DNA of 64,000 bases from positions 11,542,734 to 11,606,733 of the forward strand of contig JASSKH010000003.1 of the NCBI GenBank assembly GCA_031763025.1, given 5' to 3'. The translations under genes and the position numbers were made by a program. The DNA comes from Macrocystis pyrifera (taxonomy: Eukaryota; Sar; Phaeophyceae; Laminariales; Laminariaceae). Positions within the stretch are counted from its first letter, which is position 1, and each line of letters begins with the position of its first letter. The notes beneath the pieces are model-generated. The model searched no databases and had not been told where the DNA came from. It was given only the letters and a program-made list of their open reading frames with translations. Positions 2,455 to 49,480 of the stretch are shown here, in pieces.

Positions 2455-2595
2455 GGACGCCATTCGACGCGAGTCGACGACAGAAGAAAGGGCCGAAGTC
2501 TTCTCTCTCGCGATAACAAAACAAGGCACGAACCGTACGCAGTGGGGAGGGGGGAAGAGAGCCTGTTGTGTGACCCCGGATCTAAGTTTCGACTA
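2455..2595 (+). repeat. Dispersed repeat also present at 38725-38850
   Basis: Both places carry ATTCGACGCGAGTCGACGA, then GAAGAAAGGGC, TCTCGCGATAA, AAGGCACGAACCG, GAGAGCCTG and TGTGAC..CCGGAT. In this copy a MITE has inserted at the end of the match (2596-2699). Confidence 0.65.
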
Positions 2596-2699
2596 TTACG
2601 GGGGGGCATAGTAAATAGGACCAAATGTTGTTAGTAAAAATAAGGAAACATATAGTTTTTGTCTGTACCGTAGGTCCTATTTACTATGGCCCCCCGTAA
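2596..2699 (-). mobile_element. TA-flanked MITE (family M1)
   Basis: The ends are TTACGGGGGG..CATAGTAAATAGGACC and the inverse GGTCCTATTTACTATG..CCCCCCGTAA, flanked on both sides by TA. The length is about 104 bp with no coding capacity. The TA flanks and short inverted ends fit Tc1/mariner-type non-autonomous elements; the superfamily is inference. Confidence 0.8.
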
Positions 2700-2703
2700 T
2701 ACC

Positions 2704-5700
2704 GGATAGTAGAGCGAGTCGGGCGTTTGGGGTCTGACGCAGAGGGCACGAAGGAGGACCCACCCGATGGAAGGTCCTCCGACAAAAGCGAGGTAGGAAG
2801 AGGACAAACCGGGGGGGGAGGGGGGGCTCTACTGCCTTCACACTTTTCGGTGGCCCTCGGCAAATGGAACAGCACGCTGAAGCTAGCGGCAAAGACGCGA
2901 CATACACACATGCCATGCGTCGCGCAGGACGAAGTTCGCCATTTTGAGGGCGTATACCCAGAGGTCGGCCAATCACCTGTACAATTTGTAGTGGTCTATT
3001 TACATACCAGGTACCATGTTCGGAGGTCGTTTGGGCGTCACTTTTAGCTCGTACTATTAATAACTGTACCTGGTATGTACCAGGTAGTAACGTGTCTCAG
3101 TGCCCGGCGTTCCTTCTCGTAGCGCGAGCTATGTTCCTTCACGTAGCGCGAGTTACGTTGTACTCATGATGCAGTACGATCATGCGGTATTTTGCATTCC
3201 TGCAGCACGTACGTACGTTGTACGAGTTGGGCTGGCCAAGAGCAGCTTTTTAGTTCATGCGTTCATATCTCACGAACGACGACGAAGTAGCCAGAGCTGA
3301 TCATATCCTCTTGATCGGCCAATCAAAGCGGTCATGCACGTCTATGTTGTGTGCTGATTGGGCACGATCGCACAATGCTTTCTTTTTTCGAGTACATACA
3401 TACGAGTACGCGTAAGTACCTGGTGCTCGTATGATTTTTCTGGCTGGCATACCGTTCGTATGTACCCTGGTACCTGGCATGTATCACCTTGAGATCATGC
3501 CGCCCTGCGTCCATCGCGAAGGGGTTTTGGCCCTTGCTCATTCCCTTTCCTCGCATTTTGCCCACCGAGGAGGACGAGGAAGAAGAATGCTTCGCCAACG
3601 CTCGCGTCCCCATGTTCCTCGACCCCAGACCCGACCCCCCTTCTCCTTCTGCTTCTCCTTCTCCTTGATGTTCTTGTAAGACTTGTTTCTTGTGCTGCTG
3701 TTGTTCTTCTTGTTGTTCGTGTTCTGCTTGTTGTTCTGCCTTCGTGTTCCGCAAGGCAAGGCTGTTGTTGCAGTAGTTGTGTTCCTACCGCGCGGCGATG
3801 CCTTTCGCTCCTGTTCCCGGAAACGTCTCAACTGCCGTAGTATATTACAGATCTTCTACCCCCGAACTCTCGCTCGAGCGTCGAAGAAGCAAAGGACATG
3901 GTCAACGACGAACGACGAAAAGCAAGGAAAATTTGAAGCAAATATACAAAAGATATCATCAGAGATGACGATAAAATTTCCACGTCTGTTTTTCGTACTG
4001 GAAATAGAGTTCATAATTTATTTTCCGAGTGAGGGCAGACGAACTGGCGGTTTCGTACACATCAGCCGAAAAGGAACATTGTTGTTGCGGACGAATTATG
4101 CTGCGGACAAACTGTGCGCTGTGCCTGTGCCGGTGGTGGTACAGCAGCGCAGACGGGCACTTAGGCTGGCGCTTCTGGCACAGCATACCGCCCAGCTTGC
4201 ACTCGCAGCCTCGTCTAGTAGTACAGCAGTCGTAGTCGAAAAGTCGTGGCATTGTACGTGTTTGTTTACTGCTGTGCTGTTGTAGTACTCTGTGTTGCTT
4301 CATGAGTATCCACCATCCACCGTACATGAATGAATCAAGACAGATCTAAAAACTGCACGACGGGATGGCAAACCGCCCGCCAGCTCCTCAACAGCAGCAG
4401 CAGCAATCAAAATCTTGCCACACATAAGAAAAAACGATTAGGTCACTCATCTGCTTCATGCGGTCTCTTTGTTGGGCTGTTTCCTACGCGGTTCAGAAAT
4501 TGAGCTTCAGATTTTGACCCCATCCCCTTTTCAGCTGTGAACTTCGCGAATCGAAACAGGCTTTGTGGAAAAATCGGCTTGATTGTGCGTACAGAGATTC
4601 GAGCAAACGCCGAGACGAATTTCTTTTGTTGTAGTCTAGCGCCGCGAACAGACGCGCCAAGTGCGCTGCACTGCGCGTAGGACCCAAGTGCCCGAGCCAA
4701 CGCTGACTTCCTTTGGTCTGGCGGCGAAGAGACGTGCCGAGTGCGCTAGGGTCAACCTGTCTTGGGTATTTTGTGTTTCACAGTGTGACTTGCCTAATGC
4801 TGCTGTAGTCTACGAGGTGAGGGCCGAGTGCGCTTCTCATGGTCTTTAGACCCGAGCCCGCGCCAGCCGGCTGTAGCTTGGCCACGGAGAGACGCGCCGC
4901 CCCGCCGACCGCACGTCGGGCGCGAAGCGACGTCGTTATACAGCTAGCTGTGTCACCATCCAACTCATCGATCGTTCTGCTGCATTGCTGCTGCTTGCTG
5001 TCGTGGATAACATCTTGAATTTAGAGACCATGCCATTTTTCGATTTGAAAATCTGCTGGCCGAAGTCGTCGGATTTTGGGCCAAAATTTGATCATGGAAG
5101 TTGATGAAAGTTTCCACGGAAGTTGCTGGTAGGTTCCATGCATCCTATCCTTTACTTCCATGGAAGTAAAACGGAAGTAAAATCACTCCGTGTGGAATTT
5201 CGATCACGCCCATGGAAATAGTTTTTAGTTCCCATGAAAACCTCCGTCGACGACGGCAAAAGCGGCCGAGCGAGCCGGAGCCCACATTGATGCTGCCAGG
5301 GTTCGAACCAAATTCAACCGGGGGCGCGCAAACAGCAATAGTAGTGCGTACCAGGGCACAGTGCACATATATAGATGGGGGAAATGTTTCGTTGGTGCAC
5401 ATGTTTCGTCAGAGCTTTCGCATATCGCGCCACGAGCCGCGCGGGCTGTGTGGTGCGTCACCGCCGTACATACACAACCGAGAGTTCGACGCCGCACCAC
5501 TTCTCGACGTATATATCAGTCGCACAAACGATAATCGGCCGCTTTGAAGAGGCGACAAAACATACGTTTTGGGGGTATTGCTTGTTCAATTTTTATTGCC
5601 ACAGATCATTCATGCTTGGGGCCATTTTCGCCGCAGGCGTGTTTTGGTTTGTTTGTTTGTTTGTTTGTTTGTTCGTTGTTTTTTTGCTTTTTTTTCACCA

Positions 5701-8930: not shown

Positions 8931-8995
8931 ACCCAGGCGTTTCGTGGGAAACCCCGAACTCAAGAATGATGTGAGCCTCGCACGTATGATTTTTA

Positions 8996-9098
8996 TACGG
9001 GGGACCATAGTAAATAGGACCAAATATTGTCATTAAAAATTGGTAGATACATGGGTTTTTGTATGTACCGTAGGTCCTATTTACTATGGTCCTCCGTA
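8996..9098 (-). mobile_element. MITE family M1
   Basis: The ends are TACGGGGGACCATAGTAAAT and ATTTACTATGGTCCTCCGTA. The element sits next to a second, oppositely oriented copy only a few bases away. Confidence 0.8.
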
Positions 9099-9104
9099 TT
9101 AGTA

Positions 9105-9208
9105 TTATGGGGGTCCATAGTTAATAGGACCTATGATATGCATAAAACCTTTATATTTACCTATTTTTACTACCAATATTTAGTCCAATTTACTATGGTC
9201 CCCCGTAA
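9105..9208 (+). mobile_element. MITE family M1, GTTAATAGG subtype
   Basis: It runs from TTATGGGGGTCCATAGTTAA to TTTACTATGGTCCCCCGTAA with TA on both sides (9103-9104 and 9209-9210). The left arm carries the GTTAATAGG variant seen at 36699 and in the inner copies at 18159 and 20109. Confidence 0.82.
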
Positions 9209-9210
9209 TA

Positions 9211-10681: not shown

Positions 10682-10722
10682 CCCAGCAACCCGGTCTCCA
10701 GACGAAATGAAAAAAATGATTA

Positions 10723-10838
10723 TTACGGGGGACCATGGTAAATACGTAGGACCTATGGTAGACACAAAAACCTACCCGGTACATATTTACCTATTCTTAC
10801 CAACAGTATTTGGTCCTATTTACTATGGTCCCCCGTAG
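10723..10838 (+). mobile_element. MITE family M1
   Basis: Ends are TTACGGGGGACCATGGTAAA and TTTACTATGGTCCCCCGTAG, with TA flanks at 10721-10722 and 10839-10840. It carries an extra CGTA insertion in the left arm. Confidence 0.8.
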
Positions 10839-10883
10839 TAGTAACCCGATGAAGCATTATTACGTGTGTCACGGGGGAATGCC

Positions 10884-15250: not shown

Positions 15251-15696
15251 CAGCCCTCGACAACAACTTTAGTGTGTTCTTTATTTTCATATGTATCCCA
15301 AGCATGTCTGCATGTATACACGCACCAGGCATGCATGTTTTACTTTTGTTTTTACTTATACTTTCATCATGTCGGATCGGATCATTCAAACTCCTGCCCT
15401 GCCCTGCCCTCCTCGAAGCATGGGTGCCGGTCACGCGGAGCCCTTGACCGTACACCTGGTAATTATTATTACAACAATGCGATGAAGATCATGTAACCGC
15501 TGCACAGGCTGCGAGAGGGCGTCGCCGATGAGTTAACTTGGAGTGGGGGGGCGACCGACCGGGCTCTACATGGATTGAAGAGCTAGGCTTCGTGTATACT
15601 AGGTTTCCGTTAAAAATCGGTGTCCCTTATTTTTCTTCTTTCTTGGAGTGTTTCGTGAGATATAAACATCGAAGCTCAATTCATGCTGGACATTTA

Positions 15697-15802
15697 TTAC
15701 GGGGGATCATGGTAAATAGGGCCAAATAATGCTAGTAAAATTAGGGAAATATATAGGTTTTTTGTGTGTACTGCAGGTCCTATTTACTATGGTCCCCCGT
15801 AA
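15697..15802 (-). mobile_element. MITE family M1, target of a later insertion at its edge
   Basis: Ends are TTACGGGGGATCATGGTAAA and TTTACTATGGTCCCCCGTAA, with TA flanks. The transposon at 15808 has inserted directly beside it, and its 8-bp target duplication overlaps the last bases of this MITE. The MITE is therefore the older insertion. Confidence 0.82.
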
Positions 15803-15807
15803 TAGTT
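15800..15807. repeat. 8-bp target-site duplication, left
   Basis: TAATAGTT lies immediately before the terminal inverted repeat and recurs exactly at 17588-17595 immediately after the right end. Confidence 0.85.
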
Positions 15808-15834
15808 CACACCTCGGATAACGCAACACTCGGA

Positions 15835-16064
15835 TAACACTTATCTACGTTATGGGGCCTAACACAGAAACGTGGTAACGTACTAACATAGTGTTAGCAC
15901 TAGAGGAGCGATCACGGTAACGCGGTAACACAGTGTTAACTGGAAACCCACGAACGAGCACGAGCCTTAACGTTATGTTGCTGCTCGGTCTCGTCCAGCT
16001 ATGGTAAAGTAACATTATGTTATGCCGTGATCGGTCCTTGAACTAACACCGTAACTCAGTGTTA
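15835..16064 (+). repeat. Palindrome array A, 42-bp pitch
   Basis: Thirteen-base palindromes or near matches start at 15884, 15926, 15968, 16010 and 16052, exactly 42 bases apart, with a degenerate one near 15842. Most carry an extra TAAC half-site 8 bases upstream, giving TAAC-N4-TAAC-N5-GTTA. The intervening bases are not conserved. Confidence 0.85.
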
Positions 16065-16236
16065 GGCTTTGACCAAACACGTACGTATAACGTTACCATG
16101 TTCGCCAGCACTACTAACACATAACATTGTGTTACAGATAACACACTAACGTAACATAACGCAATGGCCAGCACTACTAACACTACGTTATCTGGACCCT
16201 CCATCCGATTGCCTTAGGGTCGGATAACGTAACACT

Positions 16237-16560
16237 TAACGTACGTTAGATACGTTACAGTCTTAGCCGGCCCATACGTAACATTATGTTAGGATGTTAG
16301 CCTAAACGCGGAAGTCTCGGTAACATTGTGTTACGGTGTTACCGTCAGTAAAGATCTGATGGTAACATTCCGTTACCGTGTTACCATAACAAACAATCCG
16401 GGTCTAACCATATGTTACTGAGTTACCGTTGGGGCCGAAGTCGTTCTAACGTGATGTTACTACGTTACCCTTTGGATCTTCCCGAGATCTAACATGTGTT
16501 ACCTGTGTTAGTGGTGAAGCGGGCGTGTGGGAGTAACATAGCGTAGCCGTGTTATCCAAT
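16237..16560 (-). repeat. Palindrome array B, 42-bp pitch, opposite polarity
   Basis: Sites start at 16237, 16279, 16321, 16363, 16405, 16447, 16490 and 16533, spaced 42-43 bases. The extra half-site is now downstream (TAAC-N5-GTTA-N(4-5)-GTTA), so this array is array A in inverse orientation. The zone 16088-16190 between them has irregular spacing. Confidence 0.85.
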
Positions 16561-16733
16561 TTCGCCGACATCCTAGTAGGGGATACCTACAAAAATATCC
16601 CCGGGGGAGGATAGCATGGCATCCCCGGTAAAAAAAAAACGCCTCCATATTTTAAAACCCCAAAACAGGGGATATTTAGGAGGGATCCCAGCGAAAAAAA
16701 ACGCCTCATTTGTGTTTGTGGAAACCCCGCCAG
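16561..16733. repeat. Motif-free central segment with a degenerate direct repeat
   Basis: TAAC/GTTA words are absent. The segment has two diverged copies of GGGGATA..(G/A)GGAGG(A/G)AT..AAAAAAAACGCCTC, starting near 16579 and 16672. Confidence 0.6.
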
Positions 16734-17560
16734 TATGTTATGCATGTATAACACTTTTCGTTATCCATCTATAACGTAATCTGCACACTCGCACGTACGA
16801 GTTAACACGGCATTAACATATTGTTGACTTTAGACTGGGGGTGTACGTTATGTACTAACTTGTGTCACTAAATACATCGCATACGAGTTAACAACATTAA
16901 CATAATGCTTTTAATAGTGTTTTATCGATCATACACGTTATCCGTTTGACGTATGTTATGTTGTTATGGTAGCAAGACTTCCGTAATACCCTCACATAAC
17001 GTCACTCGAAACGGACTGCTGCTGCGGCTGATACGGTAACATAATGTTAACGTTGTATTGACCATATACGTCATCCCTCTAACGTGTGTTACTATAGCCC
17101 CTAGGAATTTCACTAACACACTAACGTAGTGTTATGTACGCGTTTATTTGGCCGTGTACGTTATCCGTCGAAAGGGTGTTACGGTAGCACGAAGAATCCC
17201 GCTGACACACTAACGTAACGTTACTCGCTACGGGCTGATGCCACTAACACGGTAACAGAACGTTAACGTTTAATTGACCATGTACGTTATCCCTTCAACG
17301 TGTGTTACGATAGCCACCAGGAATTCCGCCAACACGCTAACATAGTGTTACTCGCTATGGGCTGCATACCCTAACACCGTAACACATATACTGCGGTCAG
17401 TACGAGATCAAGGAAACACTCTAACACATTGTTACGCGATCGCCCGCCAATATCAAAACACACTAACACTATGTTATCACAAAATCCAGAAAGTAGTTAA
17501 CGTAGCAACGTCATGTTACGTTTTTTTTTTTTTCGCTGACGCCCAACATTAACATAAAAC
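16734..17560. repeat. Palindrome array C with longer nested units
   Basis: A longer unit starting TGACCATGTACGTTATCC and containing AACGTGTGTTAC(G/T)ATAGC recurs near 16925, 17059, 17149 and 17275. In-phase TAAC-N5-GTTA sites occur at 17211 and 17253, then at 17338, 17380, 17422, 17464 and 17506, again 42 bases apart. Confidence 0.8.
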
Positions 17561-17587
17561 GTTAAGTGTTACGATATCCCAGGTGTG

Positions 17588-17595
17588 TAATAGTT
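17588..17595. repeat. 8-bp target-site duplication, right
   Basis: TAATAGTT, identical to 15800-15807. Confidence 0.85.
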
Positions 17596-17805
17596 GCAGA
17601 ATGGCAAAAAAAAACACGAAAACGAAAAGAAAGGAGCTAGGACAGCAAAAAAAAATGCAGTAGTAGATGGAGCTCTAGCCGGAAGCAGGTACAGAAAGGA
17701 CTTACACGTACACCTCGTGTACAGTAGGGCTCTTTTTGTGTCCGTAGTTTTCATCTTTCGTAGGGCTTCATTCGTGATCAACGTTGAAGCTCATCATGCA
17801 TGCTA

Positions 17806-17910
17806 TTACGGGGGACCATAGTAAATAGGACCTACGGCACACACAAAAACCTATATATTTACCATTTTTTGCTAATAATATTTGGTTCTATTTACTATGG
17901 TCCCCCGTGG
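17806..17910 (+). mobile_element. MITE family M1
   Basis: Ends TTACGGGGGACCATAGTAAA and TTTACTATGGTCCCCCGTGG, with TA at 17804-17805 and 17911-17912. Confidence 0.8.
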
Positions 17911-18100
17911 TACACATTCTCGGATGGCGAGAAATAACATTGATCATGCTGCTCCATTATCACAGGAGTGTTTGTTGGAACATACGATATAGAAAATATA
18001 TACTACTGTTGTAGCAGTATCACAATTGTCAGCGTATTTTAATTGTGTTGGCGTTATACGGAAGTATGGGGAAAATGTCAAAGACACGGAGGCCATTTTT

Positions 18101-18314
18101 TTACGGGGGACCATAATAAATAGGACCTACGATAACACCAAAACCTATATATATATTATTACAGGGGTACATAGTTAACAGGACCTACGGTATACATAAA
18201 AACCTATATATTTACCTATTTTTACTAACAAAATTTGGTCCCGTTAACTATGGACCCCCGTAATACCTATTATTAGTAACATTATTTAGTCCTATTTACT
18301 ATGGTCCCCCGTAA
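18101..18314 (+). mobile_element. MITE family M1 interrupted by a second copy
   Basis: The outer ends TTACGGGGGACCATAATAAA and TTTACTATGGTCCCCCGTAA are 214 bases apart because a second member lies at 18159-18263. The outer right arm resumes after it. Confidence 0.8.
18159..18263 (+). mobile_element. Inner MITE (M1, GTTAACAGG subtype) nested in the previous one
   Basis: TTACAGGGGTACATAGTTAA to GTTAACTATGGACCCCCGTAA-type end, flanked by TA (18157-18158 and 18264-18265). The subtype differs from the host copy, so insertion is simpler to explain than tandem duplication. Confidence 0.8.
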
Positions 18315-18369
18315 ATAGTGCCCCGAGGTTGCGCCCCCCCCCCCGCGAAGTTGATCCTTTTACCTGGAC

Positions 18370-20067: not shown

Positions 20068-20218
20068 TTACGGGGGACCTATAGAGTAAACAAGACCAAA
20101 TATTGTTATTACGGGGGTTCATAGTTAATAGGACCTATGGTGTACATGAATATATTTACCTATTTTTACTAACAATATTTGGTCCTATTTACTATGCCCC
20201 CCCGTAATAGTAAAATTA

Positions 20219-23150: not shown

Positions 23151-23973
23151 TACCGTTTCGCACGTCTGTTGCCGACACCCCAAGCCCACAGAGTCCCTTC
23201 GGCACAACACGAGATCAGTTTTTTGCGCTAACTGCTACTCCCAAGCTCTCGCCGCCGCTGCACACACACCTACCTCAGTCGCCTCACCCACTGTTCGCCC
23301 CAGTTATCATGACATCGCGTGGGAGGACGAGAGCACCTTGGAGTGGGAGGTTAGACAGGTCGCCGAGGCCACCGCCGTCGAGGGGTTTACCAACGTAGCA
23401 GTGGAAGCAGCAGCAGTAGGTCCCCAACCGCAGGACCCACAGCTGGTCCTGATGCTTCCCACCGAACGGTTTGATCTAGAAAAGGGAGCGTTGGTGGGGG
23501 TCGCTAGAGCGGCGCTGTGGTGGTTGCCGGGGTCCCCAGTATACGTCAAACTGGTGAACCGCAGTAAAGAGACAACAGTGGTAGAGGGTTGCCGTGTGAT
23601 AGCTCGACTGGTAGCCCTCAACGTCCGCGACCCCGCACGATTCGAGTCTTTATTCGATGAGATGCCCTCCACCGCTGACCCGCCCCTCCCCCGGCAAGCC
23701 CCAGACCCGACGTGTGTTTCGAGTGAAGTCAGGACAGAACCAGTCCCCAAGGTACAGGCAACCGACGCCAACCTAGGAACACTGGGATCCCTGCAGAAAC
23801 AACAACTCGTGGACGTGCTGGCAGGTTTCATCGAAGATGGCCTGTTCCCCATCGACCCCAAGCGAGTGCCGGCCTGCATCGATGGTGAGCTTGAGCTTCC
23901 TTTGATCAATGAGCTATGCACCCCTTTTGCGGCCAAACAACGACGTTTCTCCCCCGAAGAACGGCGCGCATGA
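23140..23973 (+). CDS. Pol N-terminal segment (linker before reverse transcriptase)
   Basis: A continuous frame runs from the primer-binding site to TGA at 23973. The last third (ERFDLEKG, PVYVKLVNRSKET, GFIEDGLFPIDP and KQRRFSPEER) matches the region ahead of RT in Ty3/gypsy polyproteins. The first 70 codons have isolated cysteines and histidines but no clear CCHC knuckle, and no protease D(T/S)G motif is seen. The RT begins in another frame and overlaps it at 23916-23973, so a -1 shift near 23965 is needed to continue. No start codon is certain. Confidence 0.65.
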   Translation, partial: SNSGTVSHVCCRHPKPTESLRHNTRSVFCANCYSQALAAAAHTPTSVASPTVRPSYHDIAWEDESTLEWEVRQVAEATAVEGFTNVAVEAAAVGPQPQDPQLVLMLPTERFDLEKGALVGVARAALWWLPGSPVYVKLVNRSKETTVVEGCRVIARLVALNVRDPARFESLFDEMPSTADPPLPRQAPDPTCVSSEVRTEPVPKVQATDANLGTLGSLQKQQLVDVLAGFIEDGLFPIDPKRVPACIDGELELPLINELCTPFAAKQRRFSPEERRA

Positions 23974-25403
23974 TTAGAGCAGAGATCCAGAAGTTGCTTG
24001 ACCGAGGAATCATTCGTCCCTCAGTGTCACCGTGGGCAGCGCAGTGCCTGTGTGTGCGGAAGAAAGACGGAACCCTCCGCTTGTGCATTGATTGGCGGGT
24101 ACTTAACAAGCTCCTGGTTTCCGATAGTGGAGGTCTTGGCGATATGCAGACAATTTTCGACGGGTTGAAAGGCAAACGGTACTTCACTCAGCTGGACCTT
24201 GCTTCCGGTTTTCACCAAATCGCGATTGCAGAAAAAGATCGCTACAAAACCGCGTTCAGAGATGCAGATGGACTGCTGTATGAGTTCACTAGGGCTGGCT
24301 TTGGTTTGACAGTTCTGCCTTCAGCGTTCACACGGAGGGTGAAGTCCGCTTTGGGGTGTTTAGAAGGAGTGTTCAGCTGGCTCGACGACATTCTCATCGC
24401 GAGCGCCACCTGGGACGATCACTTAGCCAAACTCGTTCTAGTCCTCAACCGTCTGTTAGCGGCGGGTCTGTCAGTTAATTTTGCCAAGTGTATTTTCGGC
24501 TCCTCCTCGCAAGAATTCCTTGGCATGATTATCGATAGTACCGGCCTACACCCCGCCCCGACCAAGTTGGAAGCCATTGCACGCATGCCGCGCCCCCAGA
24601 CAGTCGAGGAACTCCGAACGTTCCTTGGTCTGACGGGCTACTTGCGGCAGTTTGTACCCAACTATAGTCTGACCGCCGCCCCCCTCACTAACATCCTACG
24701 CAATAAAGACTTCGCGTCTAAACGCGCACGCAAGAGTACCATCGCGTGGGATTTAGAGGAGGAGCAAGCGTTTCAGTCTTTGCGCTCCACTCTAGCCTCG
24801 CCTACGGTACTCGCATTCCCCGATCTCGACAACACGTTCGAACTACACACCGATGCTAGCACAATAGGTGCGGGAGCAGTTCTTATGCAGACCATCGACG
24901 GTACGCCTCGCGTGATTGCCTTCGCTAGTCACAGATTCTCGCGTACAGATGCCCGTAGAGGCCCCACCGAACGAGAATGCATGGGAGTGCTGTGGGCTGT
25001 GGATCATTTTCGACCCTATTTAGCGGGTAGGCAGTTTACGGTAGTGACCGATTGCTCCGCTATAACCTGGCTGTTTCGAAGTCGCGAGTTGTGCCCCAAA
25101 CTACACAGATGGGCACTAAGACTGACGGAATATGATATGGTGCTGGTATGGCGAGCGGGAGTACAGCACGTCCTACCGGACGCCCTGTCGCGGCTGCCGC
25201 ACTCACAGACTCCTCAAGCCGATGTTGATGACTCCTTTCCCGACGATCTTACGTCGAAAGAACCATCCGAGTTCGTAGGACCCCGGGGACCGAGCCTTGA
25301 TGGAGTTAGGTTAGCGGACGTAGAGGCAGTAGGTGTAGATGGAACAGACGGGGGGGGATTGCCCTTCCTATCCACCGTCAGAACCGTCCACTCATGCTAC
25401 TAA
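23916..25403 (+). CDS. Reverse transcriptase and RNase H of the gypsy element
   Basis: The frame reads MIRAEIQKLLDRGIIRPSVS, RKKDGTLRLCIDWRVLN, YFTQLDLASGFHQI (first catalytic D) and FSWLDDILIAS (YxDD box with W in place of Y, both D retained). RNase H follows with HTDASTIGAGAVLMQ, TERECMGVLWAVDHF and VTDCSAITWLF, so the D-E-D residues are present, ending near HVLPDALSRLP. An acidic tail closes at TAA 25401-25403. RT copies the element RNA and RNase H removes the template. Upstream and downstream coding are in other frames, joined by overlaps. Intact motifs agree with recent origin. Confidence 0.85.
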   Translation: MHPFCGQTTTFLPRRTARMIRAEIQKLLDRGIIRPSVSPWAAQCLCVRKKDGTLRLCIDWRVLNKLLVSDSGGLGDMQTIFDGLKGKRYFTQLDLASGFHQIAIAEKDRYKTAFRDADGLLYEFTRAGFGLTVLPSAFTRRVKSALGCLEGVFSWLDDILIASATWDDHLAKLVLVLNRLLAAGLSVNFAKCIFGSSSQEFLGMIIDSTGLHPAPTKLEAIARMPRPQTVEELRTFLGLTGYLRQFVPNYSLTAAPLTNILRNKDFASKRARKSTIAWDLEEEQAFQSLRSTLASPTVLAFPDLDNTFELHTDASTIGAGAVLMQTIDGTPRVIAFASHRFSRTDARRGPTERECMGVLWAVDHFRPYLAGRQFTVVTDCSAITWLFRSRELCPKLHRWALRLTEYDMVLVWRAGVQHVLPDALSRLPHSQTPQADVDDSFPDDLTSKEPSEFVGPRGPSLDGVRLADVEAVGVDGTDGGGLPFLSTVRTVHSCY

Positions 25404-33345: not shown

Positions 33346-33933
33346 ATTCTGAAGTTAAGAGCGGCCAAAATGGCTTGTCCCACCTATAATGTCCCACCTA
33401 TAATACTAAAAGCAACACATTTCCCACTATATATAATAAGAGCAACGTGTAGTTAAGAGCGCGTGTTTCCGCTTGGTACGGTGTGCTCGGGGTAACCACT
33501 TCTGTAGTACCATCATTTAATTCTTATGTTTGCCGTCAAAATATATGTGCAGCACCATCATTTAATTAGTGTGTACGCCATCAAAGCTACGTGCAGCATG
33601 AGCTTCAACTTCCGTCGTTCATCGGCATTCAAATTCCCAGAAAGACGAATAAAAGCAAGGGAACAAAAAAACGGTAGTACTAGGCAGCGTGTTTGTCTTC
33701 GCGGGAGGCGGGGGCAATTTTTTTTTTTTTTAGCTGCTTGCTGTTGTAGAAAGCAAAAGTCCGGCGACGTACGAAGACCTATTGAGCAAGCCTGCAAAAG
33801 CAATGTAAACCCGGGTACAACATATGCGCCGGGGTGTCTTATGTGATACTATAGCACGCTGGCTTCTCGAACAATGTCGCCCTTCCTTGCTCGAGAAACA
33901 ACCTCGCCCCAACATTCAACGGCTGAGCTGTTA

Positions 33934-34038
33934 TTGTGGGGGGGCATAGTTAATAAGACCTATGGTATACATAAAGACCTATATATTTCAATGTTTTTAC
34001 GACCAATGTTTGGTCCTATTTACTATGGTCCCCCGTAA
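33934..34038 (+). mobile_element. MITE family M1, GTTAATAAG subtype
   Basis: TTGTGGGGGGGCATAGTTAA on the left and TTTACTATGGTCCCCCGTAA on the right. Confidence 0.75.
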
Positions 34039-34531
34039 TGAGAAGAACGAACACGTTTTCCTCCGTTGTGATTTCGACGTTCCCTGGAAGTATTTATCAT
34101 ACCTAGTATGTTATAAATATATATATATATGTATATCGTGGCCACATTGCGTCCTTCTTTTGCGAAAAAAAATAGTTACAACCCGTCCCCAACCCAAAAC
34201 AATTGTATTGCATACCATGCACCTGGTGTTGAACATCATTATAATAACCTGGTGTTGAAAATAGTTATAGTTATTTCACTTATTTATATCGTCTACCTAC
34301 GTGTAACAGCAGTATCTGATTCACTTTAATTCAAGCAAACAATTGAATTGATTAATTTCACCGACACATACCCATACTTCGTGCAACACTGCGCAGCATT
34401 TTAAACGGTTAACAAACGTATTGGGTGGTTCCAAAAGTATCGTCGATGATTTAATAACCTGGCTGGTGTTTGCGCTCGAACTTCAAGAGTATAATAAACT
34501 CTTCAGGAAATAATGGTCGCCCAAACGTATA

Positions 34532-36569: not shown

Positions 36570-36698
36570 GGGGGGTGGCGGGGGGGATGGGGGAGGCGCA
36601 CGACCCAATTTTTCAATCCCCGAGCCCAACTCCGCACGCGCGCTCCGGGCAAAAACACAGGCGACATGCCCCGGCGACAGCCTATCGCAGCGCAAGTA

Positions 36699-36803
36699 TT
36701 ACGGGGGTACATAGTTAATAGGACCTATGGTATACATAAAAACCTATATATTTACCTACTTTTACTAACAAAATTTGGTCCTGTTAACTATGGACCCCCG
36801 TAA
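36699..36803 (+). mobile_element. MITE family M1, GTTAATAGG subtype
   Basis: TTACGGGGGTACATAGTTAA to TTAACTATGGACCCCCGTAA, TA flanks at 36697-36698 and 36804-36805. Confidence 0.82.
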
Positions 36804-36809
36804 TAGTAG

Positions 36810-46405: not shown

Positions 46406-46445
46406 GTCATGCCTACATCTCACTACGTACAGCAGCACCTTTGTA

Positions 46446-46548
46446 TTACGGAGGGCCATAGTAAACAGGACCAAATTTTGTTGGTAAAAATAGGGAAATA
46501 TATAGGTTTGCGTGCACCGCAGGTGTTATTTACTATGGTCCTCCGTAA
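46446..46548 (-). mobile_element. MITE family M1
   Basis: TTACGGAGGGCCATAGTAAA to TTTACTATGGTCCTCCGTAA, TA flanks. Confidence 0.8.
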
Positions 46549-46662
46549 TAGTAGCCCTCGGTACAGGACAGCAGCACACATCAACAAGGCAGCAGTTCTC
46601 AGCTGGTAGTTTATCCACCGTACGAGTAGTACCAACACGCACGACGCCAAGCGCGGTAAAGG

Positions 46663-47958: not shown

Positions 47959-48614
47959 CCTCCCTGACTCTTTACGTAACATTTACGGACCGAGACAACA
48001 ACACACAATTCCATGACCTAAACCACCCACAAACAAAAAAATCGAAAAGAAAGAGGAAACCCACCCCTGTGAGCAAAAACCTCTCACTCTCCCCACAGAG
48101 AAATATTGCAATTGTAGACGATATTACAATATATCCACGCCAAAAAAATACTAAAAACTAAGGTGAAAAGTACAATGCCAGAGATCGCGGAGAACCCCGT
48201 TCCCCCGGACAAAAGTCTCCTTTTGCCCCCTACTCCCGTCATAAATTCTCAGATCGTAACGGTAATGCGAGATAGCATACGTCCTTTTTCACTTGTAAAA
48301 TTAGAATTTATCTGGCGCTACAGTTACCCGAAAAATAATAGTCGCTACCCAGTAGCTCCTAATAATCGAATAAAGAAACAATAAAATGCCGCTACTGCTG
48401 TCGACACGAACAGCTTAAGCCCTCCCAGCTACGAAAACTATTCGATCGTTCGCAGACAATATTTTATGTTCCACTTTTCTCCGATGCGAACAAGTATTCG
48501 CAAAATGATACTGTTGGCAGAACAACCAATCAACCATGAATATGCTCACCCTCCTTTATTTTGCAGGCAGTAGTCTACTACCAAAAATAAAAGATACCCG
48601 CAAAATTCAATATG

Positions 48615-49480
48615 ATCAGTAGCCACCGCCAATACCAGCAATACACCTCACCTCCCTTTGGTGTATCAGCGTACCCTTATTTCTCCGTACCGCTACCAGT
48701 ATGCATTTCATTTCTACCAGGCCCCATCTGGTCCTGTCTACACCAGAAAAACACTACAAGTTTTTCGGATTTACAACGACTGTTTGATTTGAACATGAAA
48801 ATACGTTTCGAAGCTACCAGGCGAAAAAGGCTACGTATACCGCCCAGAACGAATCCCAGATGATCCATCGTCTACTATCTACGGTTTCTCCACCCTTGCA
48901 ATATAATCAGTAGCCACCGCCAATACCAGCAATACACCTCACCTCTCTTTGGTGTATCAGCGTACCCTTATTTCTCCATACCGCTACCAGTATGCATTTC
49001 ATTTCTACCAGGCCCCATCTGGTCCTGTCTACACCAGAAAAACACTACAAGTTTTTCGGATTTACAAAGACTGTTTGATTTGAACATGAGAATACATTTC
49101 GAAGCTACCAGGCGAAAAAGGCTACGTATACCACCCAGAACGAATCCCAGATGATACATCGTCTACTATCTACGGTTTCTCCACCCTTGCAATATAATCA
49201 GTAGCCACCGCCAATACCAGCAATACACCTCACCTCTCTTTGGTGTATCAGCGTACCCTTATTTCTCCATACCGCTACGAGTATGCATTTCATTTCTACC
49301 AGGCCCCATCTGGTCCTGTCTACACCAGAAAAACACTACAAGTTTTTCGGATTTACAAAGACTGTTTGATTTGAACATGAGAATACATTTCGAAGCTACC
49401 AGGCGAAAAGGCTACGTATACCACCCAGAACGAAGAATCCCAGATGATACATCGTCTACTATCTACGGTTTCTCCACCCT
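48615..49480. repeat. 291-bp tandem triplication inside the gag-only element
   Basis: ATCAGTAGCCACCGCCAATA starts at 48615, 48906 and 49197, and each copy ends CTACGGTTTCTCCACCC. Copies 2 and 3 are closer to each other (TCTCTTTGG, CATACCGCTAC) than to copy 1. This points to two rounds of duplication. Confidence 0.92.

What the first reader, a model, noticed from the sequence alone, without database searches (positions are those of the whole stretch)
15808..17587. Transposon filled with TAAC-N5-GTTA palindromes on a strict 42-bp pitch
Palindromes start at 15884, 15926, 15968, 16010, 16052; 16237, 16279, 16321, 16363, 16405, 16447, 16490; 17211, 17253; and 17338, 17380, 17422, 17464, 17506. Within each series the step is 42 bases (43 once), close to four DNA helical turns, while the bases between sites are not conserved. 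The element has 22-bp imperfect inverted ends and an 8-bp TAATAGTT duplication. About 19 in-phase protein-binding palindromes on one face of the helix suggest a cooperative nucleoprotein filament, such as a transpososome scaffold or a captured silencing or replication array. I know of no named element with this layout.
Basis: partly seen in the sequence, partly recalled or inferred. Interest (0 to 1): 0.93.

Follow-up and report, generated by a model that had tools for sequence, protein, structure and literature searches.

The report
Kelp transposon packed with phased binding-sites
A jumping gene relic found many times in the giant kelp genome seems to carry no gene but is filled with short sites, probably docking sites for a protein, set four turns of the DNA helix apart, and some kelp genes for a jumping enzyme have similar site arrays beside them, which hints at how that enzyme assembles on DNA.

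Summary
Window 15808-17587 is a 1780-bp DNA transposon with 22-bp imperfect inverted ends, an 8-bp duplication and no open frame of 80 aa or more. Its TAAC/GTTA half-sites recur at 42 bp far beyond chance (37 lag-42 pairs; shuffle mean 0.31). The genome fits the giant kelp assembly. The family is large: 1572 end matches against 6 in a reversed-pattern control. The 1913-bp consensus of 27 copies has 17 modules TAAC-N4-TAAC-N5-GTTA (three half-sites, 21 bp), many on a 42-bp pitch with poorly conserved spacers. The ends carry the same half-site. A copy inserted in another repeat gives an empty site.

Best reading: a non-autonomous element moved by a hAT-type transposase that docks on the half-sites. 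Support: 8-bp duplications; 42-bp arrays behind two of the five longest-frame hAT hits, with three half-sites in many units; one such array ends in a tip like ours; a second high-copy kelp element with a CAGGG tip carries 40-41-bp arrays. Against: no transposase gene was found between these ends; the CACAC tip departs from the usual hAT tip; half-sites are no better kept than other bases in most copies compared; binding is untested. New variant of a known kind.

The parts
15800..15807 (.). left copy of the 8-bp target duplication TAATAGTT
15808..15829 (+). left terminal inverted repeat CACACCTCGGATAACGCAACAC; carries a TAAC half-site at its base 12
15876..16064 (+). left array, modules in + orientation (TAAC-8-TAAC-9-GTTA) at 15876, 15918, 16044, with degenerate units between
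16086..16087 (.). internal deletion in the window copy: 137 bp of the family consensus (positions 280-416) missing here
16220..16242 (+). internal copy of the terminal repeat (TCGGATAACGTAACACTTAACGT)
   Evidence: (I8)
16237..16510 (-). inner left array, modules in reverse orientation at 16279, 16321, 16363, 16405, 16447 (TAAC-9-GTTA-8-GTTA) and at 16237, 16490 (spacings 8 and 9 swapped)
16555..16736 (.). central stretch without any TAAC or GTTA
16997..17518 (+). right array, modules in + orientation, partly built of about 126-bp higher-order repeats (3 x 42)
17566..17587 (-). right terminal inverted repeat (read inwards CACACCTGGGATATCGTAACAC)
17588..17595 (.). right copy of the 8-bp target duplication TAATAGTT

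Best explanation
The element is a non-autonomous cut-and-paste DNA transposon of a family with probably several hundred copies in the giant kelp genome, moved in trans by a hAT-type transposase. SHOWN: it is repeated and has moved (8-bp duplications, an empty site), the window copy has no open frame of 80 aa or more, and it is filled with three-half-site modules, many on a 42-bp pitch; the half-site also lies in the terminal repeats. INFERRED: the half-site is the docking site of the DNA-binding domain of the transposase; the 42-bp pitch (four turns at 10.5 bp) lets successive transposase oligomers sit on the same side of the helix, so that many weak sites together capture the enzyme and bring the ends together; the sites were kept in the source elements, while inserted copies decay neutrally.
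For: Mobility: 1572 end matches (up to 2 mismatches) against 6 control matches; 8-bp duplication with at most one mismatch for 24 of 30 BLAST loci, the window copy among them, and 16 of 20 end-paired loci; 37 flank rows give target T|VAANNTTB|A (a few rows are one site copied); empty site for L028. No open frame of 80 aa or more. Array. Same half-site in ends and array. Constraint: among paralogous repeats inside the consensus, half-site positions differ at 0.133 (n=181) against 0.258 (n=360), p=0.0008 (three overlapping alignments, not independent). hAT link: of the 5 hAT-domain hits with the longest frames among the 150 listed, 2 (L078, L079) have 42-bp arrays within 1.8 kb behind the domain; three half-sites per unit in 5 of about 7 units of L078 and in 3 of about 10 of L079; their C-terminal tails are related (26 of 49 aa). 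The L079 array ends in CACACCCTAGACAACTA, ours begins CACACCTCGGATAACGT: same tip, half-site from base 12 in both; the variant CACACCCTGGACAACTA makes up 10 of 14 matches to that end. A second high-copy element with a CAGGG tip carries 40-41-bp arrays. hAT precedent: Hermes BED domains bind a 4-bp motif, AAG(T/C), present 17 and 14 times in its ends (PMC10368747, passages and section 8).
Against: No copy with these ends and a transposase gene was found. The search was partial: open frames were listed for L031, L032 and L071-L073 only, no family scan was run on interiors, and the inserts that I read look by eye like nested retroelements (L031 EN-RT frame; repeated blocks shared by L032, L033, L036; RNase H and recombinase-like frames in L072). 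None of the 100 listed end positions (of 1572) lies within 7 kb of a listed hAT hit (compared by eye). The CACAC tip departs from the usual hAT tip (C/T)A(A/G)NG (recalled). Three of five hAT loci (L076, L077, L080) lack a 42-bp array. In L079 repeats also seen in the window lie between the hAT stop codon and the array (by eye), and no second end within one mismatch was found there, so that linkage is unproven; L078 has no CACACC near its array. Among 27 copies half-sites are no better kept than the rest (0.0281 against 0.0294); of 22 loci compared with the consensus, 9 show fewer changes in half-sites (4 at p<0.05) and 13 show more (none at p<0.05). Binding was not tested.
Confidence: 0.6

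Rival explanations
1. The array binds a host protein (for instance a MYB-type factor, whose recalled core is close to TAAC), giving the element transcriptional, silencing or anchoring properties; the transposase uses only the ends.
For: TAAC resembles a MYB core (recalled, no call). The array runs almost to the centre of a 1.9-kb element, well beyond the roughly 220 bp of each end that Hermes needs (PMC10368747, passage).
Against: The same half-site lies inside the terminal repeats; arrays of like pitch but other motifs lie behind hAT genes and in a second transposon, which points to the mobility apparatus, not to one host factor.
Confidence: 0.17
2. The 42-bp pitch is only the footprint of tandem duplication (an old minisatellite of 42-bp and 126-bp units) with no function for the spacing; half-sites persist by chance or by gene conversion.
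For: About 126-bp higher-order repeats in the right half; 40-42-bp tandem repeats with conserved spacers in the GACCC element and behind the hAT genes. Most copies compared show no extra conservation of half-sites.
Against: Spacers have lost nearly all similarity while the modules persist (modules were selected for their core bases, so partly circular; a few spacer columns keep a weak preference, such as G in 12 of 17); half-sites diverge at half the rate of other positions between paralogous units; three different motifs share nearly the same pitch.
Confidence: 0.15
3. The element belongs to another superfamily with 8-bp duplications (P-like, MULE or an undescribed group), which has evolved the same kind of array independently.
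For: Tip CACACC not canonical for hAT (recalled). Galileo, a P-superfamily element, has repeats in its ends said to hold secondary transposase sites (PMC3573991, passages). MULE domains occur in the genome (94 matches).
Against: No listed MULE hit lies within 14 kb of the 100 listed ends (by eye); KDZ gave none, though the control was silent too; P-like families were not searched. The tip of the L079 array matches ours.
Confidence: 0.18

Closest known systems
Hermes (hAT superfamily) with BED-domain subterminal repeats
   Same: 8-bp target; short 4-bp half-sites repeated many times in the ends, some as palindromes, one inside a terminal repeat (PMC10368747, passages and section 8)
   Different: Hermes has 17 and 14 sites, crowded towards the tips and differently arranged at the two ends, two pairs palindromic; here 69 TAAC and 54 GTTA in the consensus and 17 three-site modules, many on a 42-bp pitch, almost to the centre; no transposase known for these ends
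Galileo (P-element superfamily, Drosophila)
   Same: tandem repeats in its ends proposed to hold secondary transposase sites (PMC3573991, passages)
   Different: 7-bp duplication, repeats of about 210 bp, no helical-turn pitch in the passages read
En/Spm with TNPA sites; Ac/Ds with AAACGG repeats (recalled; one search found no usable paper)
   Same: subterminal motif arrays in both orientations bound by an element protein
   Different: limited to a few hundred bp at each end; no fixed four-turn pitch; other duplications or tips (all recalled)
MITEs of the hAT group
   Same: non-coding, inverted ends, 8-bp duplications, high copy number
   Different: at 1.9 kb longer than usual (recalled limit); the interior is a structured array

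Membership tests
non-autonomous TIR DNA transposon | inverted ends at both sides | tested here: met
   both ends within 5 mismatches of 22 in 30 of 30 best BLAST loci and in 20 of 20 paired loci (chosen as pairs)
non-autonomous TIR DNA transposon | target duplication of fixed length | tested here: met
   8 bp with at most one mismatch in 24 of 30 and 16 of 20; empty site for L028
non-autonomous TIR DNA transposon | no transposase gene of its own | tested here: met
   no open frame of 80 aa or more in the window copy; other copies only partly examined
hAT superfamily | 8-bp target duplication | tested here: met
hAT superfamily | terminal tip of type (C/T)A(A/G)NG (recalled) | tested here: not met
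   tip is CACAC; the tip of the array behind the hAT gene of L079 is CACAC too
hAT superfamily | transposase with hAT dimerisation domain inside an element with the same ends | tested here: inconclusive
   150 hAT-domain matches listed, 150 of 317 candidates scored; none within 7 kb of the 100 listed of 1572 ends
hAT superfamily | subterminal repeats bound by the transposase | tested here: inconclusive
   repeats present and shared with the ends; binding not testable with these tools
KDZ transposons | KDZ transposase domain in the genome | tested here: inconclusive
   no match, but the control rang nowhere
MITE | short length (usually under about 0.6 kb, recalled) | tested here: not met
   consensus 1913 bp

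The most novel reading that the evidence does not exclude
Kelp hAT-type transposons share a conserved geometry rather than a conserved sequence: three DNA half-sites per 42-bp unit, repeated along the element, with different motifs in different families (TAAC, CAACT; a GACCC family at 40-41 bp). This would mean that a transposase oligomer with several DNA-binding domains assembles as a regular, helically phased nucleoprotein array along the element, a transpososome type that I did not meet in the papers found here.
Probability: 0.35. Interest if true: 0.8.

Novelty: new variant of a known kind. Interest (0 to 1): 0.62.

Why it matters
Why hAT transposases form large oligomers and carry more DNA-binding domains than the tips need is, to my knowledge, an open question. 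A family with dozens of half-sites set to a four-turn ruler, three per unit, gives a natural measuring stick for the spacing and stoichiometry of such an oligomer, and makes phase dependence directly testable. It also describes a high-copy repeat of the giant kelp genome.

Tried and rejected
The consensus was discarded: loci are not turned to the match strand, so orientations were mixed; redone. The reading that longer copies (up to 5.8 kb) are autonomous was dropped, since the inserts read look like nested retroelements (by eye; the output was cut). KDZ and MULE as source families gave no link. The exact end pattern was not found in viral contigs. Selection on half-sites among young copies is not seen. 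A motif-enrichment scan led to simple repeats in L074 and then to the GACCC element. A Pfam scan of the two hAT tails found nothing (they lie outside the domain). Paper searches for arrays, subterminal motifs and brown-algal MITEs listed no paper that I recognised as describing this element or layout; listings only, apart from PMC10368747 (passages, section 8) and PMC3573991 (passages). Not done: P-like families; a genome-wide count of the module (not completed); a search for the other end of the L079 element with a wider pattern (not completed). An earlier count said 9 of 14 for the recurring end variant; the answer shows 10.

Full report
WHERE IT IS. The window is G000:C211:11542734-11606733 of a 537,376,219-base genome in 223 contigs. 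Size and sequence number (35 scaffolds plus 188 contigs, 537 Mb) are those of the giant kelp, Macrocystis pyrifera, reference genome (PMC10498591, passages read). The name is inferred from these numbers; the tool gives none.

THE OBSERVATION. The element spans 15808-17587, with TAATAGTT on both sides. Its ends read CACACCTCGGATAACGCAACAC and, inwards from the right, CACACCTGGGATATCGTAACAC. It holds 56 TAAC and 48 GTTA; the rest of the window holds 122 and 123. TAAC-N5-GTTA occurs 18 times in 64 kb, always inside the element; chance gives 0.98. Same-orientation pairs at a lag of 42 number 37; 1000 dinucleotide shuffles gave mean 0.31 and maximum 4. No open frame of 80 aa or more lies in it.

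FINER ANATOMY. I built a 1913-bp consensus from 27 oriented copies. It has 69 TAAC and 54 GTTA, 47 lag-42 pairs and a periodogram peak at 41.95 bp. The repeating thing is not the palindrome alone but a 21-bp module of three half-sites, TAAC-N4-TAAC-N5-GTTA; 17 occur, with the majority sequence TAACAC-NN-TAACATWATGTTA. In register, the 21 bp on either side show little information, apart from a few columns with a weak preference (such as G in 12 of 17). Modules run in one orientation at consensus 69-405, are reversed at 609-777, and run in the first orientation again at 1444-1828. Successive modules are 42 bp apart within blocks, with gaps of 83-126 bp or more between blocks. The middle of the element has no half-site over about 180 bp. 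The window copy lacks 137 bp of the consensus. A TIR-like stretch recurs inside, at window 16220-16242.

MOBILITY. A BLAST of the window copy scored 40 of 1523 candidate places; 38 places besides itself cover at least about 1.37 kb of it in one piece at 90-95%. The end pattern with up to 2 mismatches occurs 772 + 800 times, against 3 + 3 for the reversed pattern. Of 30 loci, the window copy among them, 24 have an 8-bp duplication with at most one mismatch; of the other 6, two (L003, L018) are explained by a one-base shift. Of 20 loci fetched as end pairs, 16 have it. Several rows are one insertion copied with its surroundings (GAAGTTTG and AAAGCAAC sites), so these are not all independent events. 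The target is T|VAANNTTB|A over 37 rows that were chosen for a duplication with at most one mismatch. Copy L028 sits inside a small inverted-repeat element that is also in the window; its joined flanks, less one duplication, align across the junction with intact copies, one base short at the junction.

CONSTRAINT. Among 27 copies the half-sites diverge as much as the rest (0.0281 against 0.0294): copies drift after insertion. Of 22 loci compared with the consensus, 9 show fewer changes in half-sites (L071, L074, L062 and L001 at p<0.05) and 13 show more, none of these at p<0.05 (L075/L052 and L073/L066 overlap, L061 and L062 are the two ends of one element, and L001 is the window copy). Between paralogous repeats inside the consensus, half-sites differ at 0.133 and other positions at 0.258 (p=0.0008). 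This suggests that the sites were kept in the source elements while spacers changed; the three alignments overlap, so the p-value is too good, and the evidence for constraint is mixed.

WHO MOVES IT. No transposase gene was found in the copies read, but interiors were examined only in part (open frames listed for L031, L032, L071-L073). The genome holds at least 150 hAT dimerisation-domain matches (150 of 317 candidates scored) and 94 MULE matches; KDZ gave none, with a silent control. I fetched 1.8 kb behind the 5 hAT hits with the longest frames of the 150. Two (L078, L079) carry tandem arrays of 42 bp: 6.9 and 9.7 copies; three (L076, L077, L080) do not. In 5 of about 7 units of L078 three CAACT/AGTTG half-sites fall in each 42 bp (offsets 0, 5, 18), and in 3 of about 10 units of L079 (offsets 0, 17, 29); ours are 0, 8, 17. 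The two proteins' tails are related (26 of 49 aa). As a background, 165 kb made of the window, flanks and other loci, these two included, held 6 arrays of period 39-45 with three or more copies: these two, two in the GACCC element of L074, and two others (L019 flank, 45 bp; L071 flank, 40 bp); the 64-kb window held none. The L079 array ends in CACACCCTAGACAACTA, like our end CACACCTCGGATAACGT: CACACC, then GA at bases 10-11 and a half-site from base 12. Within one mismatch that end occurs 14 times (control 10), but 10 of the 14 are the single variant CACACCCTGGACAACTA. One of these, L081, has an AT-rich flank and, by eye, a worn array of about 42 bp; the computed CAACT/AGTTG sites there are only four. 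Weak points: other repeats lie between the L079 gene and its array, no opposite end was found, and L078 shows no such tip by its array.

A SECOND CASE. Inside L074, a worn copy of our family, sits another element of 776 bp with ends CAGGGCTTTTCGC (a usual hAT tip, recalled), flanked by ATATGTCG and ATATTTAG (8 bp, two mismatches), with blocks of GACCC at 40-41 bp. It too is in high copy: 2377 candidate places, 40 scored, nearly all of these close to full length at 85-90%. A small relative with flanks CTAAAAAC/CTAGAAAC lies in L064 (by eye). Here the spacers are conserved, so it could be a plain tandem repeat.

JUDGEMENT. A mobile DNA transposon with a regularly pitched site array is shown. That a hAT-type transposase moves it and reads the half-sites is the best-supported inference. 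That the four-turn pitch reflects a regular transposase assembly is a further inference. Hermes is the closest mechanism: its BED domains bind AAG(T/C), present 17 and 14 times in its ends, cooperatively at a palindrome (PMC10368747, passages and section 8). The regular pitch, the three-site module and the nearly full-length coverage are what is new.

Noticed in passing
L074:4554-5329: A second high-copy element with a CAGGG tip, an 8-bp duplication (two mismatches) and GACCC arrays of 40-41 bp, nested in a copy of the TAAC family.
   Followed up: partly
L078 and L079 (behind hAT genes on C221 and C206): 42-bp arrays of CAACT/AGTTG half-sites, three in many of the units, behind two related hAT genes.
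   Followed up: partly
window 2588-2704, 8987-9210, 10721-10843, 15695-15806, 17803-17908, 18093-18319, 20101-20212, 33926-34043, 36691-36808, 46438-46553: A family of small inverted-repeat elements of about 110 bp with ends TATTACGGGGG...CCCCCGTAATA; copies lie close to both sides of the element.
   Followed up: no
L031, L035, L042, L046, L047, L048, L050: Seven copies with the same flanks around GAAGTTTG: one insertion carried along by a larger duplicated repeat.
   Followed up: no
L022, L023, L026, L027, L029 (contig C217): Five copies with the same duplication AAAGCAAC on one 1.3-Mb contig, which points to a duplicated unit.
   Followed up: no
window 23916-25403: Reverse transcriptase and RNase H frame of a retrotransposon, recognised by eye from the translation.
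   Followed up: no
window 48608-49480: Three tandem copies of a 291-bp unit.
   Followed up: no
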